From the IMG/VR virus record IMGVR_UViG_3300025030_000411, positions 1 to 24,148 of that record: a stretch of DNA of 24,148 nucleotides, one strand, 5' to 3'. This DNA comes from a virus. How positions within the stretch are numbered: position 1 is the stretch's first letter; every line of letters begins with the position of its first letter. The position numbers and the translations under genes are program-made. This document shows positions 3,040-23,118 of this stretch, piece after piece. A model generated the notes under the pieces. It ran no database searches and had not been told where the DNA came from. It saw only the letters and a list, made by a program, of their open reading frames with translations.

Positions 3040-4812
3040 ATGTTATCTTACAAGCAATTTATCTTAACTGAAGCCATTAACTATGAAGATATGTTTAGTG
3101 GATTCCTTCAATTTTTACTTACCCCTGAAGATAAAAAAGATTTCACTGATGGCATAAATAAGGTTATTAAATCTTATAAAACTAATTTAAAAAAGGAAGA
3201 TAGAATTGTTTGGTTTCTCAGACACCACAAAATAGCGATAATGGAATATGCTTATAAACATGACCGATTAGTATTAAATTATCGTGATGCAGATTTAATA
3301 CAATTAGATAGAAAATTATTTGAACCTTGGTATGCAAATGAAATTAAAAAATATTCTTACATTAAAGAAGATGACCGTTTAACTTTCAGTGAATTGATTA
3401 CCTTTGAAAGAAATGTTCTTCATTTTCTCTCCTTACCTATTCCTGCCATACAATCGTATGTGTGGGGTAAACAAACTGATGAGCAAATATTTGATTACTT
3501 TTTAAAGTTAGAGGATGGATGGAAGGAAGCTCAGAAGGGTAAGATTAAATATACCGATCAACCATTAGATGAGGATGTCACTGTTCTTATTAATTTTAAT
3601 GATGGATTTTATTGGCTAGACCTAGAACGTTCTTATTGTGACCTTGAAGGTAAATCGATGGGCCATTGCGGTAATTCTGCGGCTAGAGATGGCTCAGTGT
3701 TATCCCTGAGAAAATTAATTAAACCTAGTGGGAATAAAGATACATGGATGTGGGAACCTCATGCGACTTTCATTCATTCTGATGAGGGCTACTTAGGAGA
3801 AATGAAGGGTAAAAATAATGAGAAGGTTATAGCTAAATATCACCCTTACATTATCGAACTCCTAAAACTTAAGGTTACCACTAGCTCTAAGGGAACTCAA
3901 TCATATTTCATTAAAGGTTTAAGAGGTGGTGGGTATAAACCTGAAGCTAACTTTAGTTTAGCTGATTTATCAGAAGAACTCTATGATGGATTAATTGAGG
4001 CTAGACCAGACCTAGACACCCTTAGTAATCGTTTTAACAAAGAAGGATTAACTGAAGATTTAATCAAAGACCTAAGAGAGAAAAATCCTCTTGGAATTAA
4101 ATTAGAATTTAATAAGAATGTTGTGGTGATTGATAAAGCTAAGAACCTAGTTGGGTTTATGGATGAGCATGGGAAGCAGGATAGACGTAATGGTAATGAT
4201 GCTAAGTATGCTGCTGAGATTTATACTGGTGAGGAAAACTTAGATTTCTATGAGACTCCTAGTGATTCTGAAATTGAATCTATTTATGATGATTGGTTTG
4301 ATGAGGATAAAGTTAGAGAATACTTAATTAAAGAATTAGGCGAAGATAAAGTTAATGCTTATGATGAAGAAGATTATAATAGTTATTTCGATTTAATTAA
4401 AGAAGAAGATGAGATAATTAATGCTATCGAACAATCCTACGCTAGAGGTTATGAGTGGGGAACGAGCAATGAGATTAGCAAAGCGATCAAGAAAGCCTTA
4501 GCTAATTTTGATATCGTGATTAATCATGGTTATGATGAATTCACTGAAGCTGGCTCTTGCTATATCTTAGGTGAGCCTCATGATGAACCATTAGAAATTG
4601 CTATGACTGTTGATAAGTTTTGTAAGATGATAGATGATCATGGGGCAGAATTAGAAGAAGAGGGTTATAAATATAATATAGAGATAGAACAACCTTATAA
4701 TGGCTGGAGTGATTTTGATGATAGAGGTGTTGTTGAATCATTAGTTGATGATGGATATAAACATTTACTTAACACTAAAGCCTTAAAGAAACTTGAGGGA
4801 TTATATGAGTAA
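3040..4812 (+). CDS. Large tagged protein, PcfJ-like motif, 590 aa
   Basis: Starts MLSYKQFILTE-A, the shared tag with one extra residue, so the predicted cleavage is after Glu11. The middle holds C-x(6)-M-G-H-C-G-N (Cys200, His209, Cys210), then VLSLR (220-224), PHATF (240-244) and a GxxNxK segment (257-262). This series of motifs resembles PcfJ-like proteins of plasmids and phages, whose biochemical role is not established. The C-terminal third (about 400-590) is very acidic. It is the largest tagged protein here and the first gene after a divergent promoter pair. It overlaps the neck gene by eight bases. Confidence 0.75.
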   Translation: MLSYKQFILTEAINYEDMFSGFLQFLLTPEDKKDFTDGINKVIKSYKTNLKKEDRIVWFLRHHKIAIMEYAYKHDRLVLNYRDADLIQLDRKLFEPWYANEIKKYSYIKEDDRLTFSELITFERNVLHFLSLPIPAIQSYVWGKQTDEQIFDYFLKLEDGWKEAQKGKIKYTDQPLDEDVTVLINFNDGFYWLDLERSYCDLEGKSMGHCGNSAARDGSVLSLRKLIKPSGNKDTWMWEPHATFIHSDEGYLGEMKGKNNEKVIAKYHPYIIELLKLKVTTSSKGTQSYFIKGLRGGGYKPEANFSLADLSEELYDGLIEARPDLDTLSNRFNKEGLTEDLIKDLREKNPLGIKLEFNKNVVVIDKAKNLVGFMDEHGKQDRRNGNDAKYAAEIYTGEENLDFYETPSDSEIESIYDDWFDEDKVREYLIKELGEDKVNAYDEEDYNSYFDLIKEEDEIINAIEQSYARGYEWGTSNEISKAIKKALANFDIVINHGYDEFTEAGSCYILGEPHDEPLEIAMTVDKFCKMIDDHGAELEEEGYKYNIEIEQPYNGWSDFDDRGVVESLVDDGYKHLLNTKALKKLEGLYE

Positions 4813-5578: not shown

Positions 5579-5983
5579 ATGCTATCTTATAAACAATATT
5601 TATCAGAGTCAACAATGGGAATTAATATTAATGACTCTGAGTATCCTTGGACTGATTATATTATGAGTGGAAAGAAAACTATTGAAACTCGTAATACTCC
5701 TACCCTTAGACCTTATATTGGAAAGAGAGTGGGAATTATTCAGACTGGTAAAGGTAAGGCTAAACTTATTGGTTATATGACGATAGAAAAAGAAATTGAG
5801 TATGATAAAGAAAGTTGGGCTAAGGATAAATCTAAACACTTAGTTGATTCTGAACTAGGAGACGGGGAGAAGAAATATGGTTATGTTATAGGTAAGGTAG
5901 AGAAGATAACTCCCCAAGAAATTAATTCCAAGGGTATTGTGGCGAGGAAGATAAATGAAAACTTACAAGCAATGGCTAACTGA
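5579..5983 (+). CDS. Tagged ASCH-domain-like protein, 134 aa
   Basis: Begins MLSYKQYLSE-S from the ATG at 5579 (a GTG one codon upstream is unlikely to be the start). Residues about 17-70 match the ASCH (PUA-like) fold: PWTDYIMSGKKTIETR (23-38), then GKRVGIIQTGKGKAKLIGYM. Family knowledge: ASCH domains bind RNA, and some bacterial members are ribonucleases. If packaged through its tag, it would be an RNA-directed protein delivered at infection; that is inference. The end overlaps the next gene by 29 bases. Confidence 0.7.
   Translation: MLSYKQYLSESTMGININDSEYPWTDYIMSGKKTIETRNTPTLRPYIGKRVGIIQTGKGKAKLIGYMTIEKEIEYDKESWAKDKSKHLVDSELGDGEKKYGYVIGKVEKITPQEINSKGIVARKINENLQAMAN
5584..5612 (-). promoter_or_regulatory. 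Sigma70-type promoter inside a tag-coding region, leftward
   Basis: Minus strand TTGACT (5612-5607), 17-base spacer, TAAGAT (5589-5584), about 30 bases upstream of the 49-aa leftward gene starting at 5553. It lies entirely within the first codons of the opposing tagged gene. Confidence 0.55.
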
Positions 5984-6401
5984 AGCTAAACAAGTTTCAG
6001 TAGAAGAATATAACGATTTATTAAAGTCAATTTATTCTCCAGAGTTCTCAGAGATGATTTTATCTCAGGATGAAATGTTATCTGATATGATGGGGGAAGA
6101 TCCTACCGTTGAGACGACAGGTAATCTTTTCGTGAAATACCTAGAGACTCCTAATGAAGCTTTCATTATCGGCCTATTAAGCAAATCAGGTAAGATGAAA
6201 CGTGATGATGTAGAAGATTTTAGGATATGGAAAACGAGATTAATTAAAGCCTTAGATAAAGGTAAGGAAGTTTACACCTCTGTTAATAAATTTAGTAGAC
6301 CTTTAATCAATAAATTAATTAAAGATTATGAGGTAACAAGTATCGGTAAATTAAACTTCCCTGATGGTGAATGGGAAACCATTATGATTAATAAGCCTTA
6401 G
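5955..6401 (+). CDS. Tagged hypothetical protein, 148 aa
   Basis: Begins MKTYKQWLTE-A, with predicted cleavage after Glu10. The start lies within the end of the ASCH-like gene (29-base overlap). The ribosome binding site is GCGAGGAAG. The body is helical in its first half and ends in a short beta-like segment (TSIGKLNFPDGEWETIMI). No family recognised. A terminator hairpin begins within its last codons, so this gene closes a transcription unit. Confidence 0.75.
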   Translation: MKTYKQWLTEAKQVSVEEYNDLLKSIYSPEFSEMILSQDEMLSDMMGEDPTVETTGNLFVKYLETPNEAFIIGLLSKSGKMKRDDVEDFRIWKTRLIKALDKGKEVYTSVNKFSRPLINKLIKDYEVTSIGKLNFPDGEWETIMINKP

Positions 6402-6468: not shown

Positions 6469-6912
6469 ATGAAGAGTTATAAAGAATATTTATTGGAAAT
6501 ACTCAAGAATAGCTACGACTTTGACTATGTAGACGACGACCAATATACATTTGAAACTGATAAACGGATAACCTATAAAGTAGGATTTGTTGATGGAGAA
6601 TACATTAAAGATTATGAAGGATTTGAGAAATATAATAGTTTAACTCTAGCAGAGATATTCTTTTATATAAAGAGAGGAGATTTTAATTTAAGTAACACTA
6701 AGGATCAATATAAAGTATTCTCTACTATCATATCCATTATAGAAAGTTATGTAAAGAATAGTAGTGTCGATGTAATAGTGTTTATTTCAAAGAAGAGTGA
6801 AAAATCTAGAACTAGTCTTTATGAAAAAATCATAAATAAATTAGGGAAGAAGTATGAGAAGATTTATGATGAAGTGGAAGATTTTTACTTCTTCATGGTG
6901 GAGGTAAACTAA
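6469..6912 (+). CDS. Tagged hypothetical protein, 147 aa
   Basis: Begins MKSYKEYLLE-I. ATG follows AGGAGAAGATCA. The body has a central helix (FSTIISIIESYVKN), a strand (VDVIVFISKKSE) and a SRTSLYEKIINKL segment. The last two resemble a small phage family that I know by pattern but cannot name. Fold layout could suit a small alpha/beta enzyme, but no catalytic residues are evident. It shares one base with the next gene (TAATG). Confidence 0.7.
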   Translation: MKSYKEYLLEILKNSYDFDYVDDDQYTFETDKRITYKVGFVDGEYIKDYEGFEKYNSLTLAEIFFYIKRGDFNLSNTKDQYKVFSTIISIIESYVKNSSVDVIVFISKKSEKSRTSLYEKIINKLGKKYEKIYDEVEDFYFFMVEVN

Positions 6913-7295
6913 TGAAGACTTGGAAAGAATGGTTAGGCGAGTCTATGTCTGACACTCATATCATTAGAAATCCTAGTAAGAAACAATTTGAGGATTTAAT
7001 TAGTTCATCAAATATGAATATGATAAGAGGACTCTTGACTGATGATCAATTCTATATCTGGAAAAATTTAAATAAAGTTCATAATGATGTTGCTGATGAC
7101 ATTAAGCCTTATGGTTCTTTAAAGTCATTCATCAAACTAAATATTACTCAACATAAGAATATGAAACCTTACTATAGGATGCAAGTTGATAAGGTCTATG
7201 ATGGTAGAGTAATTCCTTATAGCTATGATAAGATTAAGGATAACAAACATATCAATAATATTTTCTCTAACGAATATGTTCAGAAGGATAATTAA
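6912..7295 (+). CDS. Tagged hypothetical protein, 127 aa, related to the 2050 gene
   Basis: Begins MKTWKEWLGE-S; Trp replaces Tyr at position 4, the only such case. The body holds NPSKKQFEDL, MIRGLLTDDQFYIW and VHNDVADD in the same order as NPSKSE, RLILDSEERKLY and LHDD in the protein at 2050, so the two are probable paralogues. The order and spacing look like a small phage family with unknown function. It is coupled to the upstream gene by a one-base overlap. Confidence 0.7.
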   Translation: MKTWKEWLGESMSDTHIIRNPSKKQFEDLISSSNMNMIRGLLTDDQFYIWKNLNKVHNDVADDIKPYGSLKSFIKLNITQHKNMKPYYRMQVDKVYDGRVIPYSYDKIKDNKHINNIFSNEYVQKDN

Positions 7296-7297
7296 AA

Positions 7298-7963
7298 ATG
7301 AAATCATATAAACAATGGTTGTTAGAAACATCATCTAATAGATTTGAAGATTATATAAAATCAAACACGATAACCTATTCTGGATTTGTTTTTCACGGCA
7401 CATATTTAAGAAATCTTTATGAAATTTTGTCCACATCTAGTATTCACGGAAACTCTCATGGAGAAATAAGAGATAGTGATACGTTTTCGACTTCTATAAA
7501 CGACAATATGATTAACAAGTTTTCTGACACTAACTCTGGATTAGCGTTTGAGGTTAATGAATTAAAAATCTTTGTTATTCCTGAATGGTTTTTAAAGTTT
7601 TACACCGACTCTAGTTTGGGTGAGGATGTTGACGAAACATTAGCGAAAGAAAATATAGAAAAATATAACATTCCGTTGGATAGATTTGGAGAGATAAAAG
7701 AAAATTATTTAGGAGATATTCTTCGGAAGCTAGGAATAAAAGCAGGATGTCATGAGTATATGAAAGACACAATCATTAGTAACAACTATGGGCACAACGA
7801 TGAATCAGAAATAATCATTTTTGATCCTGATTGGTTATTGAACAATATAGGAGAAATATATGTGAACGGAGAAACATTTGAAGATAAAGACGAAGCCATA
7901 AAATACATTGAGGATAATTTTGACTTAGAAGAATTAGAGTGGCAAGAAAAATATAGGGATTAA
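7298..7963 (+). CDS. Tagged ADP-ribosyltransferase-like protein, 221 aa
   Basis: Begins MKSYKQWLLE-T. Behind the tag there are three motifs in the order expected for the ADP-ribosyltransferase fold: FHGT (residues 32-35) followed by a helix LRNLYEIL, then FSTS (63-66), and ESEIIIF (169-175) as a possible E-x-E motif. T4 injects the ADP-ribosyltransferase Alt to modify host RNA polymerase, so a packaged enzyme of this fold has precedent. Overall similarity is weak, the residues are read by eye, and the first motif has His where Alt-type enzymes have Arg. Acidic C-terminus. The target is unknown. Confidence 0.5.
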   Translation: MKSYKQWLLETSSNRFEDYIKSNTITYSGFVFHGTYLRNLYEILSTSSIHGNSHGEIRDSDTFSTSINDNMINKFSDTNSGLAFEVNELKIFVIPEWFLKFYTDSSLGEDVDETLAKENIEKYNIPLDRFGEIKENYLGDILRKLGIKAGCHEYMKDTIISNNYGHNDESEIIIFDPDWLLNNIGEIYVNGETFEDKDEAIKYIEDNFDLEELEWQEKYRD

Positions 7964-7971
7964 GGACTGAT

Positions 7972-9357
7972 ATGAAATCATATAAGGAATGGCTAGAAGA
8001 AGCCTTAAAATTATCTCAGTATAGAGATCAATATAAAATATTCAAGAAACATTTTAATAAGAAATACGATGCTTGGTTTGGTGATGCTAAACGAATCTAC
8101 TTACCCTTAAACGGATTTGAATCTGACTCGACTTACCAATTAGTTAATAGTAAATTGAATAGTAAGGGTTATGAAATTTCCTCATGGAAAGATGGTATAG
8201 CTGTTAAGAAGGAGAGTAATCGAATTATTCGTATTGGTAAACTCTTAGCTGATGATGATTCTACCTTGAAGAAATTTAATGAAAGATTTAAGGGTAAGAA
8301 TGCTTCTGAGGAAAAAGAATATGAAATAGTGATTAGTCGTCACCTTTATGACTATGTCTCACAATCTACTGATCGTCAATGGTCTAGTTGTAAGAATTTA
8401 GTTGATGGTGAGAATAAATATTATATTCCTGCTGAGTTTGAAACTGACTGGATGATAGCTTATGTTATTGAGAAGGGTGAAGAGTATTTTAAAGATGTCC
8501 ATTCTAAAATAAGCAAAGAAGTGAGTGACGAAATATTCAACGCTATTAAAAAAACACAACACAGATCATCTGATGTAATTGGTCTTAGGGGAAAAATATT
8601 TGATAAAAAAGAATTTTATGACAACATAACCGATACAAGAATGAATATTATAAAATATTTGTCTGACGGTGTAGAAGAAGGTATAGAAGAATTTAAAGAA
8701 ATTATTGACAAATATGAAAAACATTTTACTGTCAAACAAGTTCCTAGCAAAGAAAAATTAAATGACCCTATTGCAAGATTATTAATTGTTCCTTATTTCA
8801 ATCCTAATAATCCTGAAGATATCTTTCTTTATGTTCCAGATAGACCTTATGGGAAGATGGTATCAGGATTCAGGGAAACCGTTCAGGCTTGGTTAGATAA
8901 GAAGCAAGGTAAGAAGACTGGAGTTTATTGCAGAACTAATTCAGGTTATGACGATAAGTATCCTGCTAAAATTAATAAGGATACTGGTGAAGAATTAATG
9001 CACGATAACCCTACCTTTAATCTCTTAACATTAGGTTACATTACTTTCTTTAAGAATGGTGAGCCTACTGATTATTCTCCTGATAATATGAAACGATTAG
9101 TGGCTAACAAAGATGATGCTTACCCCTTATCCTCCTTCATGGAAGAAGTTTATATTGATGAGGCTAGTTTAATTGAAGCTGCTATAGCTGGGGTTAATAC
9201 TCTCAAGAAATACTTCATCGATACCCTAGAAGCCTTAATTGATAATTGGGAGAATGAGAAAGAAGGAACAGAAAGAGATCGATATCTTAACTATTATAAG
9301 AAGCTCATTAGGATGATAAATAGTGGTACAATGGCAGTTAGATTCACACTGGAGTAA
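7972..9357 (+). CDS. Large tagged protein of unknown function, 461 aa
   Basis: Begins MKSYKEWLEE-A. A central block SRHLYDYVSQSTDRQWSSCKNL (split here as SRHLYDYVSQ, 122-131, and STDRQWSSCKNL, 132-143) and a later block NDPIARLLIVPYF look like two conserved parts of one domain. I recognise the pattern from large-phage hypothetical proteins but not a function. Between them, at about residues 172-262 (8485-8757), codon choice shifts (more AAA and ATA, less AAG), suggesting an insert. The C-terminal part contains SLIEAAIAGVNTLKKYF, a probable helix. Confidence 0.65.
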   Translation: MKSYKEWLEEALKLSQYRDQYKIFKKHFNKKYDAWFGDAKRIYLPLNGFESDSTYQLVNSKLNSKGYEISSWKDGIAVKKESNRIIRIGKLLADDDSTLKKFNERFKGKNASEEKEYEIVISRHLYDYVSQSTDRQWSSCKNLVDGENKYYIPAEFETDWMIAYVIEKGEEYFKDVHSKISKEVSDEIFNAIKKTQHRSSDVIGLRGKIFDKKEFYDNITDTRMNIIKYLSDGVEEGIEEFKEIIDKYEKHFTVKQVPSKEKLNDPIARLLIVPYFNPNNPEDIFLYVPDRPYGKMVSGFRETVQAWLDKKQGKKTGVYCRTNSGYDDKYPAKINKDTGEELMHDNPTFNLLTLGYITFFKNGEPTDYSPDNMKRLVANKDDAYPLSSFMEEVYIDEASLIEAAIAGVNTLKKYFIDTLEALIDNWENEKEGTERDRYLNYYKKLIRMINSGTMAVRFTLE

Positions 9358-9362
9358 CCTTA

Positions 9363-9668
9363 ATGTTAACTTATAAAGAATGGTTAAATGAGTCTGCGGA
9401 ATATCAAGGAAGAAAAGTTACCCTAGATAAACCTAGATCCTCAGATAATCCTAAGAAGAAATATATGGTTTATGTGAAGAATGATAAGGGTAATGTTGTT
9501 AAGGTTTATTTCGGTGATCCCGAAAGTACCATTAAGAGAAGTAATCCTGATAGAAGAAAAGCATTTAGGTCTAGACATTCCTGTGATGATGATAAACCTA
9601 ATAAATGGGAGCCTAGATATTGGGCTTGTAAATTTTGGGACAAGAAATCTATTAAGGATCTATTATGA
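9363..9668 (+). CDS. Tagged small basic protein, 101 aa
   Basis: Begins MLTYKEWLNE-S. The body is strongly basic, with FGDPESTIKRSNPDRRKAF, RSRHSCDDD and RYWACKFW. This pattern (FGDP...IKR..P.RR..FR.RH.C...RYW.C..W) recurs in proteins from very diverse phages. Its role is not established. The Cys and His residues could bind metal, and the charge suits a DNA-associated packaged protein. Its end overlaps the next gene by four bases (ATGA). Confidence 0.75.
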   Translation: MLTYKEWLNESAEYQGRKVTLDKPRSSDNPKKKYMVYVKNDKGNVVKVYFGDPESTIKRSNPDRRKAFRSRHSCDDDKPNKWEPRYWACKFWDKKSIKDLL

Positions 9669-10204
9669 AAACTTATAAGCAATGGTTAATTGAATCTTCA
9701 ACTAAACCTAATTGGTCGATTACTCCTTGGAGAGATGATGAAGGTTATCATGAACCCTTAGGGATGGTTCCACTTCAATCTAAAAGTGATGTTGAGTATA
9801 GAGGGTTGATAGGATTAATTACCCCTCGTAAGTTTCAATACCTTGCTGCTCAACCTACTGGTGGATTATCTAATGTTGAGGGACTTAAGGAAGAGATGTC
9901 AAAGGGAACTCCTATTGCTCCTCCTTGGCTAGATATTAAAATTGATGATGGTCGTTGTGTTGTTAGAGGACATGAGGGTAGAAATAGAGTTGAAGCGGCT
10001 AAACAGTTATATGGTAATGATCCTGTACCTATTATGCTTTATCTTTATATTGATGGAACTAAGGGAACATATAAAAACTTAGCACAATATATTGATCTAG
10101 TTGATGCTGGATTATTCTCAGAAAAATTGAATTATATATTGAGAAACCCTTCATTAAACTTGATATGGGTGATAAGGTTAGTGAGTATATTTAATGGGAG
10201 TTAA
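9665..10204 (+). CDS. Tagged ParB-like protein with probable C-terminal frameshift
   Basis: Begins MKTYKQWLIE-S. Residues 84-122 (IAPPWLDIKIDDGRCVV, RGHEGRNRVEAAKQLYG) match the ParB/Srx-like core, with the GHEGRNR motif at 102-108. Family members bind or cut DNA or act as nucleotide-dependent switches. The last 23 residues look unnatural. Shifting frame at the TATATAT run (10133-10139) gives the more protein-like ending EKPFIKLDMGDKVSEYI, with a stop at 10192-10194. A two-base TA gain in that run would explain this. The coordinates given follow the frame as read. Confidence 0.7.
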   Translation: MKTYKQWLIESSTKPNWSITPWRDDEGYHEPLGMVPLQSKSDVEYRGLIGLITPRKFQYLAAQPTGGLSNVEGLKEEMSKGTPIAPPWLDIKIDDGRCVVRGHEGRNRVEAAKQLYGNDPVPIMLYLYIDGTKGTYKNLAQYIDLVDAGLFSEKLNYILRNPSLNLIWVIRLVSIFNGS

Positions 10205-10221: not shown

Positions 10222-11751
10222 ATGAAAAATAATATCTATTATAGAGGTAACAGCAATCTCAAAGGCGATAATGTAGATCTAGAATATACACCAGAACAAA
10301 TAGAAGAAGTAATTAAATGTAGGGAAGACGTAAAATATTTCATTAAAAAATATGTAAAAATTGTAACTCCAAACGGTTTACAGTTATTTGAACTTAGAAA
10401 CTATCAAGAAAATATTATAGATTTAATACATAATAACGGAAGGTGTGTCTATCTTTCGGGCCGTCAATCGGGAAAAACGGCCACAGCAGCAGCATACATA
10501 GCTCATTATATTATTTTCAATCAGTATAAGAACGTGGCTATTGTTGCCAACAAGGAGGAAACGGCTAAGGTCATTTTCGATAGAGTTCAGTTAATATATG
10601 AACATCTTCCTATCTGGCTTAAGGTTGGGGTAAGAGAGTGGAATAAGAAATCCTTAGAGTTAGATAATGGTTGTACTGTAGTTATAGGGTCGTCTTCATC
10701 AACATCAATTTCGGGTCGCAGCATCAATTTGCTGTACATTGATGAATGTGGACTCATCCCAAAGAAAATGGCCGAGAAATTTTTTGACTCTGTTCTTCCG
10801 GTTGTTTCAGCAGATCCAAACGCTAAGATTGTTATTTCCAGTACTCCTAAAGGATTAAATCATTTCTATAGGATATGGAAAGAGGCAGAAAGTGGAAGAT
10901 CTGGTTATAAACATTTAAAGGTTGAGTGGTGGGAAGTACCGGGGAGAGACGAAAAATTTAAAGAAAAGATAATAAGAGAAAAGGGTATTGAACATTGGGA
11001 ACAAGAATACGCTGTAGAATTTAAGGGGTCTGGTGGTTCCTTAATTGATAGTTACTCGTTAAAGGCTATGGTTGTTGAAACTCCTCTTGAGTCTAGGATG
11101 GAAAGTAAATTTGATATCCTAGAGTATCCTAAACCAGATAGGAAATATTTAATCTTTGTTGACACTGGAGAGGGAGTTGGATTAGATGAATCAACTTGTC
11201 AAGTCCTAGATATAACGACTAGGCCATACAAACAAGTGGCTGTGTATTATGATAACACAGTTAAGATAGAAAATTTTCATGTACCTATCTCCTTAATTGG
11301 AGAAATGTATAACACTGCCTTAGTTGTCATTGAAACTAATAATGGTGGATCTGAAGTTTGCAGAAATCTCAACTACGATGTGGAATATGAGCACCAATTC
11401 TTCAATGATGATTTTGGAGTTAAGACCACAAAGTTAACTAAACGTTTAGGATGTTCCCAATTAAAATATTTAGTGGAAAGTGGTCAATTAATTTTAACTC
11501 ATTGGAAGACCATAGAACAGTTAGGTGGGTTTGTTAGAAATGCTAGAGACTCTTATAGTAACGAAGATGGTGACGATTTAGTTATGCCATTAGTGAACTT
11601 TGCTTACTGGATAAATAATAAGGACTTCACGAATCTTTGGTTAGACGAAGAAAACCTAAGCAAAATATTAAATAAATCTCAGATAGATGATATCAACGAA
11701 AACTTAATTCCATGCTCACTCTTTTGTGACGATGGATTGGATGACGATTAA
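10222..11751 (+). CDS. Terminase large subunit
   Basis: 509 aa. The N-terminal ATPase shows Walker A SGRQSGKT (79-86), Walker B LLYIDE (170-175) and coupling motif SST (206-208). The C-terminal RNase H-like nuclease shows Asp314 in FVDTGEG, Glu371 in VVIETNNGG and Asp451/452 in EDGDDL. It translocates DNA into the prohead at the portal and cuts the concatemer. It is directly followed by sheath and tube genes, as T4 gene 17 is by 18 and 19. No small terminase subunit gene is recognisable in the window. Confidence 0.96.
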   Translation: MKNNIYYRGNSNLKGDNVDLEYTPEQIEEVIKCREDVKYFIKKYVKIVTPNGLQLFELRNYQENIIDLIHNNGRCVYLSGRQSGKTATAAAYIAHYIIFNQYKNVAIVANKEETAKVIFDRVQLIYEHLPIWLKVGVREWNKKSLELDNGCTVVIGSSSSTSISGRSINLLYIDECGLIPKKMAEKFFDSVLPVVSADPNAKIVISSTPKGLNHFYRIWKEAESGRSGYKHLKVEWWEVPGRDEKFKEKIIREKGIEHWEQEYAVEFKGSGGSLIDSYSLKAMVVETPLESRMESKFDILEYPKPDRKYLIFVDTGEGVGLDESTCQVLDITTRPYKQVAVYYDNTVKIENFHVPISLIGEMYNTALVVIETNNGGSEVCRNLNYDVEYEHQFFNDDFGVKTTKLTKRLGCSQLKYLVESGQLILTHWKTIEQLGGFVRNARDSYSNEDGDDLVMPLVNFAYWINNKDFTNLWLDEENLSKILNKSQIDDINENLIPCSLFCDDGLDDD

Positions 11752-13501: not shown

Positions 13502-14002
13502 ATGACTGGTATCGCAGATTTCGTAAGTAAATTTCAACATGGAGCTAGATCTAATCTCTTCCGATTAGACATCCCTGCTAAACTTAGTGCTGATACTAAG
13601 TTCTTTGTGAAAGCAGCTCAGATTCCCGGTAAGACGATTAATAAAATTGAGATGAAATATCTCAACAATATTATTCCTATTGCTGGAGAAACCGCAACCT
13701 TTCAGGATTGGTCAATTACTGTTGTGAATGATATTGATTATGGTATCAGAAAACAGCTTGAGGCGTGGATGGATTCGATTAAGTCTAACCTTGAAACTAA
13801 TGGTGCAACGAATCAGAATCAATATTACGCTGATGCTACTGTGACTCAGATTCTTCAGAATGGACAAGATAGTAATATTAGCTATACGATGAAATATTGT
13901 TTCCCTACTGATCTTGGGACTATTGATCTTTCCTTTGACAATCAAGATCAGGTTCAAGAATTTCAAGTGACCTTCGCGCTCGGCGGCTGGATAGCAAATT
14001 AA
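13502..14002 (+). CDS. Tail tube protein, T4 gp19-like
   Basis: 166 aa behind AAGGAGTTATAAA. The segments ADFVSKFQHGARSNLF (5-20), KAAQIPGKTI, YLNNIIPIAGE, FQDWSITVVND and SFDNQDQVQEFQVTF at the end match the T4 gp19 tube family. The protein forms the hexameric inner tube through which DNA and packaged proteins pass. Its place straight after the sheath supports this. A second paralogue of the same length lies at 22618. A terminator follows. Confidence 0.9.
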   Translation: MTGIADFVSKFQHGARSNLFRLDIPAKLSADTKFFVKAAQIPGKTINKIEMKYLNNIIPIAGETATFQDWSITVVNDIDYGIRKQLEAWMDSIKSNLETNGATNQNQYYADATVTQILQNGQDSNISYTMKYCFPTDLGTIDLSFDNQDQVQEFQVTFALGGWIAN

Positions 14003-20499: not shown

Positions 20500-21507
20500 A
20501 TGCTATCTTATAAAGAATATTTAGCGGAAAAAGTAAGTGATATCATCTTTCATAAAAGTAATCTTCAGGCAGTCCTAAAAATCCTCACTCAAAATAGATT
20601 CAGATTAACGAGTGCGGTTGGCACTGAGTCTGACAAGATTCATAATAAAAATAAATATTATTACCTCTCAACTGCTAGAAGTCCTATGTCTAGTTACATT
20701 GCTAAAGACCCTTACACTTCTGAAATTTACCTGACCTTAGATGGAAAGAAATTGAATCAAAAATACAAGGGCTTCCCTGTTGATTATTGGGGGCCAGAGT
20801 TCAGAAAGGTTGATCCCTCTAAACACGAGATGGAAGATAGGGTTGTATCCGATGATCAATTTATCGAAAATGCAATCGATTATATTAAAGAGGTTCATAT
20901 CCTCTACTCCTTCTCATCCACTGAATTTTCGTTTCTTGATATTAAGAAAGAGAATCCGAAAACTAGAGAGACTAAGGTTGATGATAGATTTGTAGGAACA
21001 ATCCAACAGATTTATTCATTCTGTAAGAAGAATAATATTCCTATCTACCTTTATAAAAATAAATCTGACTATGGCACTAGAAATAAAAAGAATGCTATTA
21101 ACACTTTAGATATGCTTAAGGATAGAGACTCCTTTAAAGAGGATAAGAAAGAATATGTATCTAGATTTGATATGGTTAAGGGTTATGATGAGGCGAGTGC
21201 TTGGGTAGAAGTCATTAAGTTTCCTATTGAGAAATATCGATTAGAGACTAGAGAAGATTATGAAGAAAAAGTGTTACCCTTATTCTCAAAAAATGCTAAA
21301 CGAATTTTAACTAATTATGTGTTGGGTTGGTACAAGGAAGATGGAATGACTCAGTTCAAAGTGATGTTTCATAATTATAAATCTAATGATAAGATTGGCA
21401 AGATCATTAAGGTGATGAGAGATTTAAAGATAAATACTCCTGAAGACTTATTTGAGAAGATCTATGATAAGTATAAATTCGTTATCAAATTAAATTATAG
21501 GAAATAA
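20500..21507 (+). CDS. Tagged protein, ADP-ribosyltransferase-like by motif order, 335 aa
   Basis: Starts at ATG 20500 behind AAGGATAATT; a TTG five codons upstream is not needed and would bury the tag. Begins MLSYKEYLAE-K. The next 130 residues read IFHKSNLQAVLKIL, then YYYLSTARS, then HEMEDRVVS and a terminal YIKEVHIL. The order His ... ST(S/A) ... E-x-E resembles ADP-ribosyltransferase folds, and LDGKKLNQKYKG with VDYWG looks like a conserved family block. This is weaker than for the gene at 7298. The rest of the protein is not recognised. Confidence 0.45.
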   Translation: MLSYKEYLAEKVSDIIFHKSNLQAVLKILTQNRFRLTSAVGTESDKIHNKNKYYYLSTARSPMSSYIAKDPYTSEIYLTLDGKKLNQKYKGFPVDYWGPEFRKVDPSKHEMEDRVVSDDQFIENAIDYIKEVHILYSFSSTEFSFLDIKKENPKTRETKVDDRFVGTIQQIYSFCKKNNIPIYLYKNKSDYGTRNKKNAINTLDMLKDRDSFKEDKKEYVSRFDMVKGYDEASAWVEVIKFPIEKYRLETREDYEEKVLPLFSKNAKRILTNYVLGWYKEDGMTQFKVMFHNYKSNDKIGKIIKVMRDLKINTPEDLFEKIYDKYKFVIKLNYRK

Positions 21508-21509
21508 TT

Positions 21510-22613
21510 ATGCTATCTTATAAAGAATACTTAGATGAACGTAGAAGTAATCATGAGAATAATCCTAAAGTGTCGGCTTATACTCAGCTAAGACCTTATA
21601 GGAATGATCCTGATATTTATATTTCCTTCACTGATGTAGATAAATTAGGGATTAATCCTAAGAGTCGGTATAATACTCCGCTAGGAATCTACTTTTTCCC
21701 TCTGAAAGAAGTATGGTCTTTAATCGAGCATAAGGAATCTACAAGGGGATTACCTTTTGCTGGAGATAGGCCTTATATTTGGATCGTGAAGGGTAAGAAT
21801 AAAAACTTTATTAATGATATGTATAAAGATTATGGGAGTGATAACTTTGATAAGGACGTAAAAACACTGAAGAAGATATGGGAAGATAACCTAGAAAATG
21901 TTCCAACTGAGTTTGATAGATTGATTTCTAGCCTAAAGGAAGATGTAGAGGATTATACTGAGAGATACGACAGAGTAGTAACCCTTACAGACGAAGAAAT
22001 AAAAGAACGATATGATATGAGCAGAGAGGAATTACTAATTAAGCGTAAGGAAAAATTAGATAAATTTGGACGCGAATTAGTTTTATATGAAACAAATAAG
22101 AGAGATTTTTTACTTGGGTTATGGGACGAAACTTATGAGAAAGCATTAGCCTCAGCTAGAGGAAAGAATCCTATATCGTCATTTTGGAATTTAAGTAGAT
22201 TAATTTCTGAAGAGATGACACCTTATGAAGCTCCAATAAAACGAGCAACTAAGTGGAACTGGCTCTTAAGACAGTGCGGCTATAGTGGCTTTGCTGATAA
22301 ATCTGGTAAAGGTTATATTCACCCCTCTGAGCCAACACAAGCGGTGTTCTTAACCAGAGATGCCTTTACCGTAATAGATAAAATTTTAAATAAAGATTAT
22401 GGAGAGGGTATAAAATCTTTGTTGAGTGAGGTTCATAAGTGGGAAGAATTATATGATATGATGTATAGAGAAAATAGAATTCAAATGGTGAAGTATAAAG
22501 ATATTTCAAACTATAAAGAGTTAATAGATGATATAGTTGATGTTCTAGATATGGAGAAACACTTTCCTAATACCCTAAAGAAAATTAAATCAGGTTATTT
22601 CAAGAGGAAATAA
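21510..22613 (+). CDS. Tagged protein, first of a paralogous pair, 367 aa
   Basis: Begins MLSYKEYLDE-R, two bases after the previous stop. Layout: a conserved N-terminal domain (about 11-125, with YNTPLGIYFFPL and PFAGDRPYIWI), a variable charged helical middle (about 126-210), and a conserved C-terminal domain with CGYSGFADKSGKGYIHPSE and TQAVFLTRDAF. The same layout is seen in the gene at 23118. I know this C-terminal pattern from phage hypothetical proteins but no function. An 89-base block is identical to its paralogue. Confidence 0.75.
   Translation: MLSYKEYLDERRSNHENNPKVSAYTQLRPYRNDPDIYISFTDVDKLGINPKSRYNTPLGIYFFPLKEVWSLIEHKESTRGLPFAGDRPYIWIVKGKNKNFINDMYKDYGSDNFDKDVKTLKKIWEDNLENVPTEFDRLISSLKEDVEDYTERYDRVVTLTDEEIKERYDMSREELLIKRKEKLDKFGRELVLYETNKRDFLLGLWDETYEKALASARGKNPISSFWNLSRLISEEMTPYEAPIKRATKWNWLLRQCGYSGFADKSGKGYIHPSEPTQAVFLTRDAFTVIDKILNKDYGEGIKSLLSEVHKWEELYDMMYRENRIQMVKYKDISNYKELIDDIVDVLDMEKHFPNTLKKIKSGYFKRK
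21793..21881 (+). repeat. 89-bp exact repeat, copy 1
   Basis: Identical to 23401-23489. It encodes KNKNFINDMYKDYGSD and the residues after it, up to the border of the variable middle region. Sequence on both sides differs clearly. Confidence 0.9.
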
Positions 22614-22617
22614 TTAT

Positions 22618-23118
22618 ATGGCTTCGATCTCAGACTTTGTTTCTAATTTTCAACATGGGGCTAGACCAAACTTATTTAAAGTTGAAATTCCCTTCTTGGG
22701 TGAGAAGATGAAATTCTTCTGTAAGTCTGCTAGTATCCCCGGTATGAGTTTCGATAATATTCCAATTAATTATCAGAATAACACGATAAATATTGCTGGT
22801 GATATCAGTTATCAACCTTGGCAATTGACTATTATTAATGATAAAGATTTCCTCATTAGGAAAAATATTGAACGTTGGATGGGAGCTATTAAGGCTGGAT
22901 ATGGGACTAGTGGAGCAACTAGTCTAAAAGAATACCTTAAGAGTGCTTACGTTTATCAGTTAGATGAAGAGGGTGGCGAGATTCAAGGTTATGTTTTAAA
23001 TTATTGTTACCCTAGTAATCTTGGTGAGATCCCCTTAAGTTTTGATAATCAGAACACAGTTGAAGAATTTCAGTTAGAGCTTACATATAGTTTTTTCGAG
23101 AGAAATGGATTACTATAA
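22618..23118 (+). CDS. Second tail tube paralogue (gp19-like)
   Basis: 166 aa, the same length as the tube protein at 13502. Shares SDFVSNFQHGARPNLF, KSASIPG, IAGD, WQLTIIND and SFDNQNTVEEFQLE at matching positions, but most other residues differ, so this is an old duplication. It could be a tube initiator or terminator ring (as gp54 and gp3 of T4 are tube-fold proteins), a minor tube component or an alternative tube. It is framed by tagged genes, and there is no sheath gene beside it. Ribosome binding site GAGGAAATAATT. Confidence 0.8.
   Translation: MASISDFVSNFQHGARPNLFKVEIPFLGEKMKFFCKSASIPGMSFDNIPINYQNNTINIAGDISYQPWQLTIINDKDFLIRKNIERWMGAIKAGYGTSGATSLKEYLKSAYVYQLDEEGGEIQGYVLNYCYPSNLGEIPLSFDNQNTVEEFQLELTYSFFERNGLL

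What the first reader, a model, noticed from the sequence alone, without database searches (positions are those of the whole stretch)
7298..7963. Packaged ADP-ribosyltransferase-like effector
Seen: behind the tag, FHGT, FSTS and ESEI occur in the order and rough spacing of ADP-ribosyltransferase motifs. Known: T4 Alt is a head-packaged ADP-ribosyltransferase that modifies host RNA polymerase. Inference: this may be a functional counterpart with a different (His-type) first motif.
Basis: partly seen in the sequence, partly recalled or inferred. Interest (0 to 1): 0.62.

Follow-up and report, generated by a model that had tools for sequence, protein, structure and literature searches.

The report
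Probable head-packaged ADP-ribosyltransferase in T4-like phage
A virus of bacteria carries a small protein with an address label for the inside of the virus head and the hallmark residues of enzymes that stick ADP-ribose onto other molecules; the label is convincing, the enzyme call is likely but not proven, and other viruses join the same label to similar enzymes again and again.

Summary
The tag MKSYKQWLLE is one of 13 near-identical N-terminal tags in the window, against none in 100 simulated windows. It fits the T4 capsid-targeting sequence, so packaging and injection are a strong inference.

The ART reading is plausible but unproven.

The best support is comparative. Searching IMG/VR for 'tag + [FY]HGT' gave 13 loci, all tagged ART-like proteins in six groups. 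Two groups pass Pfam's ART-PolyVal cut-off. Their profile, built without this protein, retrieves only KptA, cholix and exotoxin A-type ARTs from the PDB. This protein aligns to ART-like profiles better than nearly all of 362 control ORFs.

Best view: a divergent His-type ART delivered with phage DNA, target unknown. It may work like T4 Alt but is not shown to be an Alt homologue.

The parts
7298..7963 (+). CDS of the finding, 221 aa, tagged putative His-type ADP-ribosyltransferase
   Evidence: orphan in phages, plasmids, viral contigs and genome contigs
7298..7327 (+). capsid-targeting-sequence-like tag MKSYKQWLLE (aromatic 4 and 7, L8, E10; predicted cleavage after E10)
   Evidence: T4 CTS rules from PMC9026906; PHROG internal head protein matches the same tag region in L110
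7391..7402 (+). FHGT, residues 32-35; candidate first ART motif (His33)
   Evidence: invariant HGT in all tagged relatives aligned
7484..7495 (+). FSTS, residues 63-66; candidate second ART motif
   Evidence: aligns with GFYTT of L007:8460-8918
7802..7828 (+). ESEIIIFDP, residues 169-177; candidate third ART motif. E171-IIIFDP aligns with E-FVVLDP of L140, which passes the ART-PolyVal cut-off
6912..7295 (+). upstream tagged gene (MKTWKEWLGE), unknown
6469..6912 (+). tagged gene (MKSYKEYLLE), weak DUF6934 match
5955..6401 (+). tagged gene (MKTYKQWLTE), unknown
5579..5983 (+). tagged gene (MLSYKQYLSE), ASCH-like domain at the edge of the Pfam cut-off (ORF listed from 5576)
7972..9357 (+). tagged gene (MKSYKEWLEE), conserved in sister contig L011
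9363..9668 (+). tagged gene (MLTYKEWLNE)
9665..10204 (+). tagged gene (MKTYKQWLIE), 81% identical to an L011 gene
2050..2538 (+). tagged gene (MKTYKEWLAE)
3040..4812 (+). tagged gene (MLSYKQFILTE), 73% identical to an L011 gene
10222..11751 (+). terminase large subunit directly downstream of the cargo block (T4-like phage context)
20500..21507 (+). second tagged ART-like candidate (MLSYKEYLAE); family with invariant H, S, R and ExE-x-R (ORF listed from TTG 20485)

Best explanation
A divergent His-type ADP-ribosyltransferase carried inside the head of a T4-like phage. Step 1: the protein is made late with other head and tail proteins (inferred from its place upstream of terminase, sheath and tube). 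Step 2: the ten-residue N-terminal tag draws it into the prohead core and is cut off after Glu10 by the prohead protease (inferred from the T4 precedent). Step 3: it is ejected with the DNA into the next host cell (inferred). Step 4: His33 and the FSTS strand bind NAD+, and Glu171 (possibly with Glu169) directs transfer of ADP-ribose to a host molecule, in first-line take-over or counter-defence (inferred). The gene sits in a block whose content differs in a sister contig, as expected for exchangeable cargo. Packaging is the firmer half (about 0.85); ART chemistry for this protein is about 0.6; the target is unknown, and RNA polymerase is only one possibility.
For: Tag: 13 copies in the window, 0 in 100 simulated windows; it meets the T4 CTS rules (PMC9026906); PHROG 'internal head protein' matches residues 1-22 of a relative with the same kind of tag. 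Neighbourhood: terminase large subunit at 10222-11751, T4-like. Cargo block: sister contig L011 shares the flanking genes at 53-81% identity but has no copy of this gene. Tag + [FY]HGT across IMG/VR: 13 loci, all tagged open proteins in six groups. L140 and L144 pass the ART-PolyVal cut-off, and L007:8460-8918 matches PARP, DUF3990, KptA and ART-PolyVal weakly. The profile without this protein finds only KptA, cholix and exotoxin A-type ARTs in the PDB at E <= 0.01. [FY]HGT in 3 of 112 tagged versus 0 of 1,249 untagged proteins from tag-only loci. This protein against profile A5: 5 of 362 ORFs and 1 of 200 shuffles score as high, one of the five being the tagged HGT protein L093; against profile A7: only the family member itself among 362 ORFs and 0 of 200 shuffles. 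EIIIFDP matches EFVVLDP of L140.
Against: No match of this protein to any ART family in Pfam, PHROGs, NCBIfam or the PDB. A profile of the tagged ART-like proteins did not recruit it at E < 20 with hmmsearch. The single hhalign comparisons are weak (P 0.036 and 0.0057). Both AlphaFold2 models failed and Foldseek on the second found no ART. No homologues, so conservation of H33, S64 and E171 cannot be tested. The scan control with the motif reversed also returned 11 loci, though nine of them are one short family.
Confidence: 0.55

Rival explanations
1. The tag is a genuine capsid-targeting sequence, but the body is an unrelated small protein (for example an inhibitor of a host nuclease, as T4 IPI is) and the three motifs are coincidence.
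For: No family, fold or homologue evidence for the body; the loose motif pattern occurs in 0.5% of shuffles and 11 of 1,361 ORFs; most other tagged proteins of the window show no ART signature.
Against: FHGT soon after the tag is the recurrent arrangement in six groups of tagged ART-like proteins; profile comparison places this protein above nearly all controls; the end motif matches ART-PolyVal.
Confidence: 0.3
2. An ART-fold protein that does not ADP-ribosylate macromolecules: an NADase, a KptA-like 2'-phosphotransferase or NAD-derivative enzyme, or an inactive pseudoenzyme.
For: The nearest solved structures to the tagged set are KptA/Tpt1 RNA 2'-phosphotransferases; several tagged relatives lack an obvious third-motif Glu.
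Against: This protein has a well-placed Glu in an ART-PolyVal-like strand, which the H-H-h KptA clade does not use (clade names from PMC9503650).
Confidence: 0.12
3. A functional counterpart of T4 Alt that modifies host RNA polymerase.
For: Predicted packaging and injection, as for Alt (PMC9026906).
Against: No Alt/VIP2 family match; a His rather than Arg first motif; no evidence on the target.
Confidence: 0.08

Closest known systems
T4 Alt (R-S-E clade, Alt/VIP2 family), packaged ADP-ribosyltransferase
   Same: Predicted to be packaged in a T4-like head, cut by the prohead protease, injected, and to act first in infection
   Different: His-type first motif, 221 aa, no sequence match to Alt/VIP2; carries an IP-type capsid-targeting tag
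T4 internal proteins IPI, IPII, IPIII with capsid-targeting sequence
   Same: Ten-residue N-terminal tag with aromatic 4 and 7, L/I at 8 and E at 10; exchangeable cargo genes
   Different: T4 IPs are small basic proteins, not described as ART enzymes; this one is acidic with ART-like motifs
ART-PolyVal (PF18760) and PARP/KptA-like H-type ARTs
   Same: HGT first motif; E..VVF/LDP-like end motif; tagged relatives L140 and L144 pass the ART-PolyVal cut-off
   Different: This protein does not match PF18760 itself; it has FSTS where H-Y-E enzymes have Tyr, and about 100 residues between second and third motif
H..STAR..ExEDR family of large phages (window 20500-21507)
   Same: Tagged in this window; His, Ser-Thr and ExE in the same order; best profile match of this protein
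   Different: Separate family with an invariant Arg after the second motif and widespread homologues; this protein is not a clear member

Membership tests
T4-type capsid-targeted internal proteins | N-terminal ten-residue tag with aromatic 4 and 7, hydrophobic 8, Glu 10 | tested here: met
   rules from PMC9026906
T4-type capsid-targeted internal proteins | Cleavage by prohead protease and presence in the virion | not testable with these tools
   needs mass spectrometry of virions
ADP-ribosyltransferase superfamily | Split beta-sandwich ART fold | tested here: inconclusive
   AlphaFold2 pLDDT 34 and 45; Foldseek without meaningful hit
ADP-ribosyltransferase superfamily | Ordered NAD-site motifs (His or Arg; S-T-S or Tyr; Glu) | tested here: met
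   H33, S64-T65-S66, E169/E171 in order; chance level of a loose pattern 0.5%
ADP-ribosyltransferase superfamily | Significant profile match | tested here: not met
   none in Pfam, PHROGs, NCBIfam or PDB; suggestive profile ranking only
ADP-ribosyltransferase superfamily | Conservation of the catalytic residues among homologues | not testable with these tools
   no homologues found
ART-PolyVal PF18760 | Score over the curated cut-off | tested here: not met
   no match in the window, though L140 and L144 pass
T4 Alt / VIP2 family | R-S-E active-site profile and family match | tested here: not met
   His-type first motif; no family hit at E <= 1

The most novel reading that the evidence does not exclude
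T4-like phages use one ten-residue capsid address label as a plug-in on many unrelated His-type ADP-ribosyltransferases, giving an exchangeable injected ART arsenal. This window would carry at least two such cargo enzymes (7298-7963 and 20500-21507), both with a hybrid active site: His first motif as in PARP/KptA, Ser-Thr second motif and ExE third motif as in the R-S-E clade.
Probability: 0.4. Interest if true: 0.62.

Novelty: new variant of a known kind. Interest (0 to 1): 0.45.

Why it matters
Packaging of ARTs into phage heads is known from T4 Alt and inferred from domain fusions and gene context (PMC9503650). A cleavable address label on the protein itself marks injected ARTs directly and makes them findable by a short sequence pattern, as done here. 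If true, it turns many 'hypothetical proteins' into testable first-minute effectors, and the His/STS/ExE combination would test how separate the large ART clades are.

Tried and rejected
Single-sequence AlphaFold2 (pLDDT 34) and AlphaFold2 with 12 tagged relatives (pLDDT 45): both unusable; the second would in any case have been partly circular. Foldseek on it: best E 4.2, no ART. Relatives by back-translated peptides in viral contigs and genome contigs: none. tblastn in phages and plasmids: only a chance-level Synechococcus phage hit, and nothing. A DNA pattern for H-STS-E-FDP: two hits, both broken by stops, rejected as chance. L011:7367-7963, in the same place in the sister contig, was considered as an orthologue and rejected: it begins like a GIY-YIG endonuclease (recognised by eye, not by a family search). 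Using the count of tag+HGT loci alone as evidence was rejected: the reversed-motif control gave 11 loci, so the argument rests on the variety of families and their ART matches. T4 late promoter TATAAATA: only two in the window, fewer than chance, none by this gene.

Full report
Observation. The N-terminal MKSYKQWLLE is one of 13 near-identical tags at gene starts in the window (2050, 3040, 5579, 5955, 6469, 6912, 7298, 7972, 9363, 9665, 20500, 21510, 23118); 100 simulated windows gave none.

The tag. In T4, the first ten residues of IPIII suffice for packaging; positions 4 and 7 matter for targeting, 8 and 10 for cleavage (PMC9026906). All ten-residue tags here have an aromatic residue at 4 and 7, Leu at 8 and Glu at 10; the 3040 tag has one extra residue. 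PHROG 'internal head protein' matches residues 1-22 of a tagged relative, L110. The phage is T4-like by its terminase. Sister contig L011 keeps the flanking genes (53-81% identity) but has different genes between them, including other tagged genes and a GIY-YIG-like gene, and lacks this one. This is what an exchangeable cargo block looks like. Packaging itself was not observed.

The body on its own. No match above chance in Pfam, PHROGs, NCBIfam or the PDB. No relatives in phages, plasmids, IMG/VR or GTDB genomes. Two AlphaFold2 jobs gave pLDDT 34 and 45, and Foldseek on the better one found nothing.

The body in company. Scanning IMG/VR for the tag alone gave contigs with other tagged proteins. 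Among 112 tagged proteins from those loci 3 have [FY]HGT near the start, against 0 of 1,249 untagged (about 5 in 10,000 by chance, my own calculation from these counts). Scanning for tag plus [FY]HGT gave 13 loci, all single open tagged proteins, in six groups. L140 and L144 pass the Pfam cut-off for ART-PolyVal; L007:8460-8918 matches PARP, DUF3990, KptA and ART-PolyVal below cut-off; L110 and L139 match the PHROG RNA 2'-phosphotransferase. A profile of these proteins without the window protein finds only KptA and cholix/exotoxin A-type ARTs among solved structures at E <= 0.01. A control scan with the motif reversed gave 11 loci, nine of them one short family, so raw counts prove little; the ART matches do the work.

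Placing this protein. Plain HMM search with a profile of the tagged set does not recruit it. Profile alignment puts FHGT on HGT and FSTS on the second motif with P 0.036; 5 of 362 control ORFs and 1 of 200 shuffles do as well, one of the five being a tagged HGT protein. Against the profile of the window's other candidate family it scores above all 361 unrelated ORFs and all 200 shuffles, on the first motif only. The segment E171-IIIFDP aligns with E-FVVLDP of L140; first motif plus this end motif occurs in none of 50,000 shuffles or 1,470 ORFs, with the caveat that the pattern was written afterwards. Together I put the ART reading at about 0.6.

A second candidate. Tagged 20500-21507 belongs to a family found in large phages of Vibrio, Dickeya, Rhizobium, Pseudomonas, Alishewanella and others, annotated as hypothetical where annotated. 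Its profile finds no solved structure, but aligns to the tagged ART set with P 0.0008.

Relation to known systems. A survey of viral NAD/ADP-ribose systems reports ARTs in 30% of myoviruses, with about 44% of phage ARTs in contexts suggesting head packaging, and names the H-H-h, H-Y-[EDQ] and R-S-E clades (PMC9503650). Packaged phage ARTs are thus known. In the passages I read and the searches I made I did not find capsid-targeting tags described on ARTs; that is a limited search. I therefore call it a new variant of a known kind: like Alt in its predicted delivery, not shown to be an Alt homologue.

Noticed in passing
window 20500-21507 (+): Tagged protein of a widespread large-phage family with invariant H, S-T, R and ExExR; a second ART-like cargo candidate, homologues annotated hypothetical. 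Its middle part has a sub-cut-off 2CompARG match.
   Followed up: partly
window 21510-22613 and 23118 onward: Two tagged genes whose starts are nearly identical (MLSYKEYLDERRSNHENN / MLSYKEFLFERRSNHENN); the second is cut by the window end. Only a distant match in a 735-kb uncultured phage.
   Followed up: partly
window 13502-14002 and 22618-23118: Two tail-tube-like paralogues matching the same genes in other T4-like contigs, the second sitting between tagged cargo genes.
   Followed up: no
L007:7450-8460 and L007:8460-8918: Two tagged ART-like genes in tandem in one related contig; the first has FHGT about 150 residues in.
   Followed up: partly
L141:9228-9746 and L161:5962-6444 (Vibrio phage Kuja): A tagged HGT protein whose Vibrio-phage relatives lack the tag, suggesting the tag was gained or lost.
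   Followed up: partly
window 5579-5983 and 6469-6912: Tagged cargo with an ASCH-like domain and with a DUF6934-like domain; tagged L159:12413-13342 also matches DUF6934.
   Followed up: no
L150, L151, L152, L154, L155, L156, L157, L158, L160: A 67-aa protein with a tag-like start (MKSFKE[FY]SKSLHG) repeated nearly unchanged in nine contigs; it lacks the Glu at position 10.
   Followed up: no
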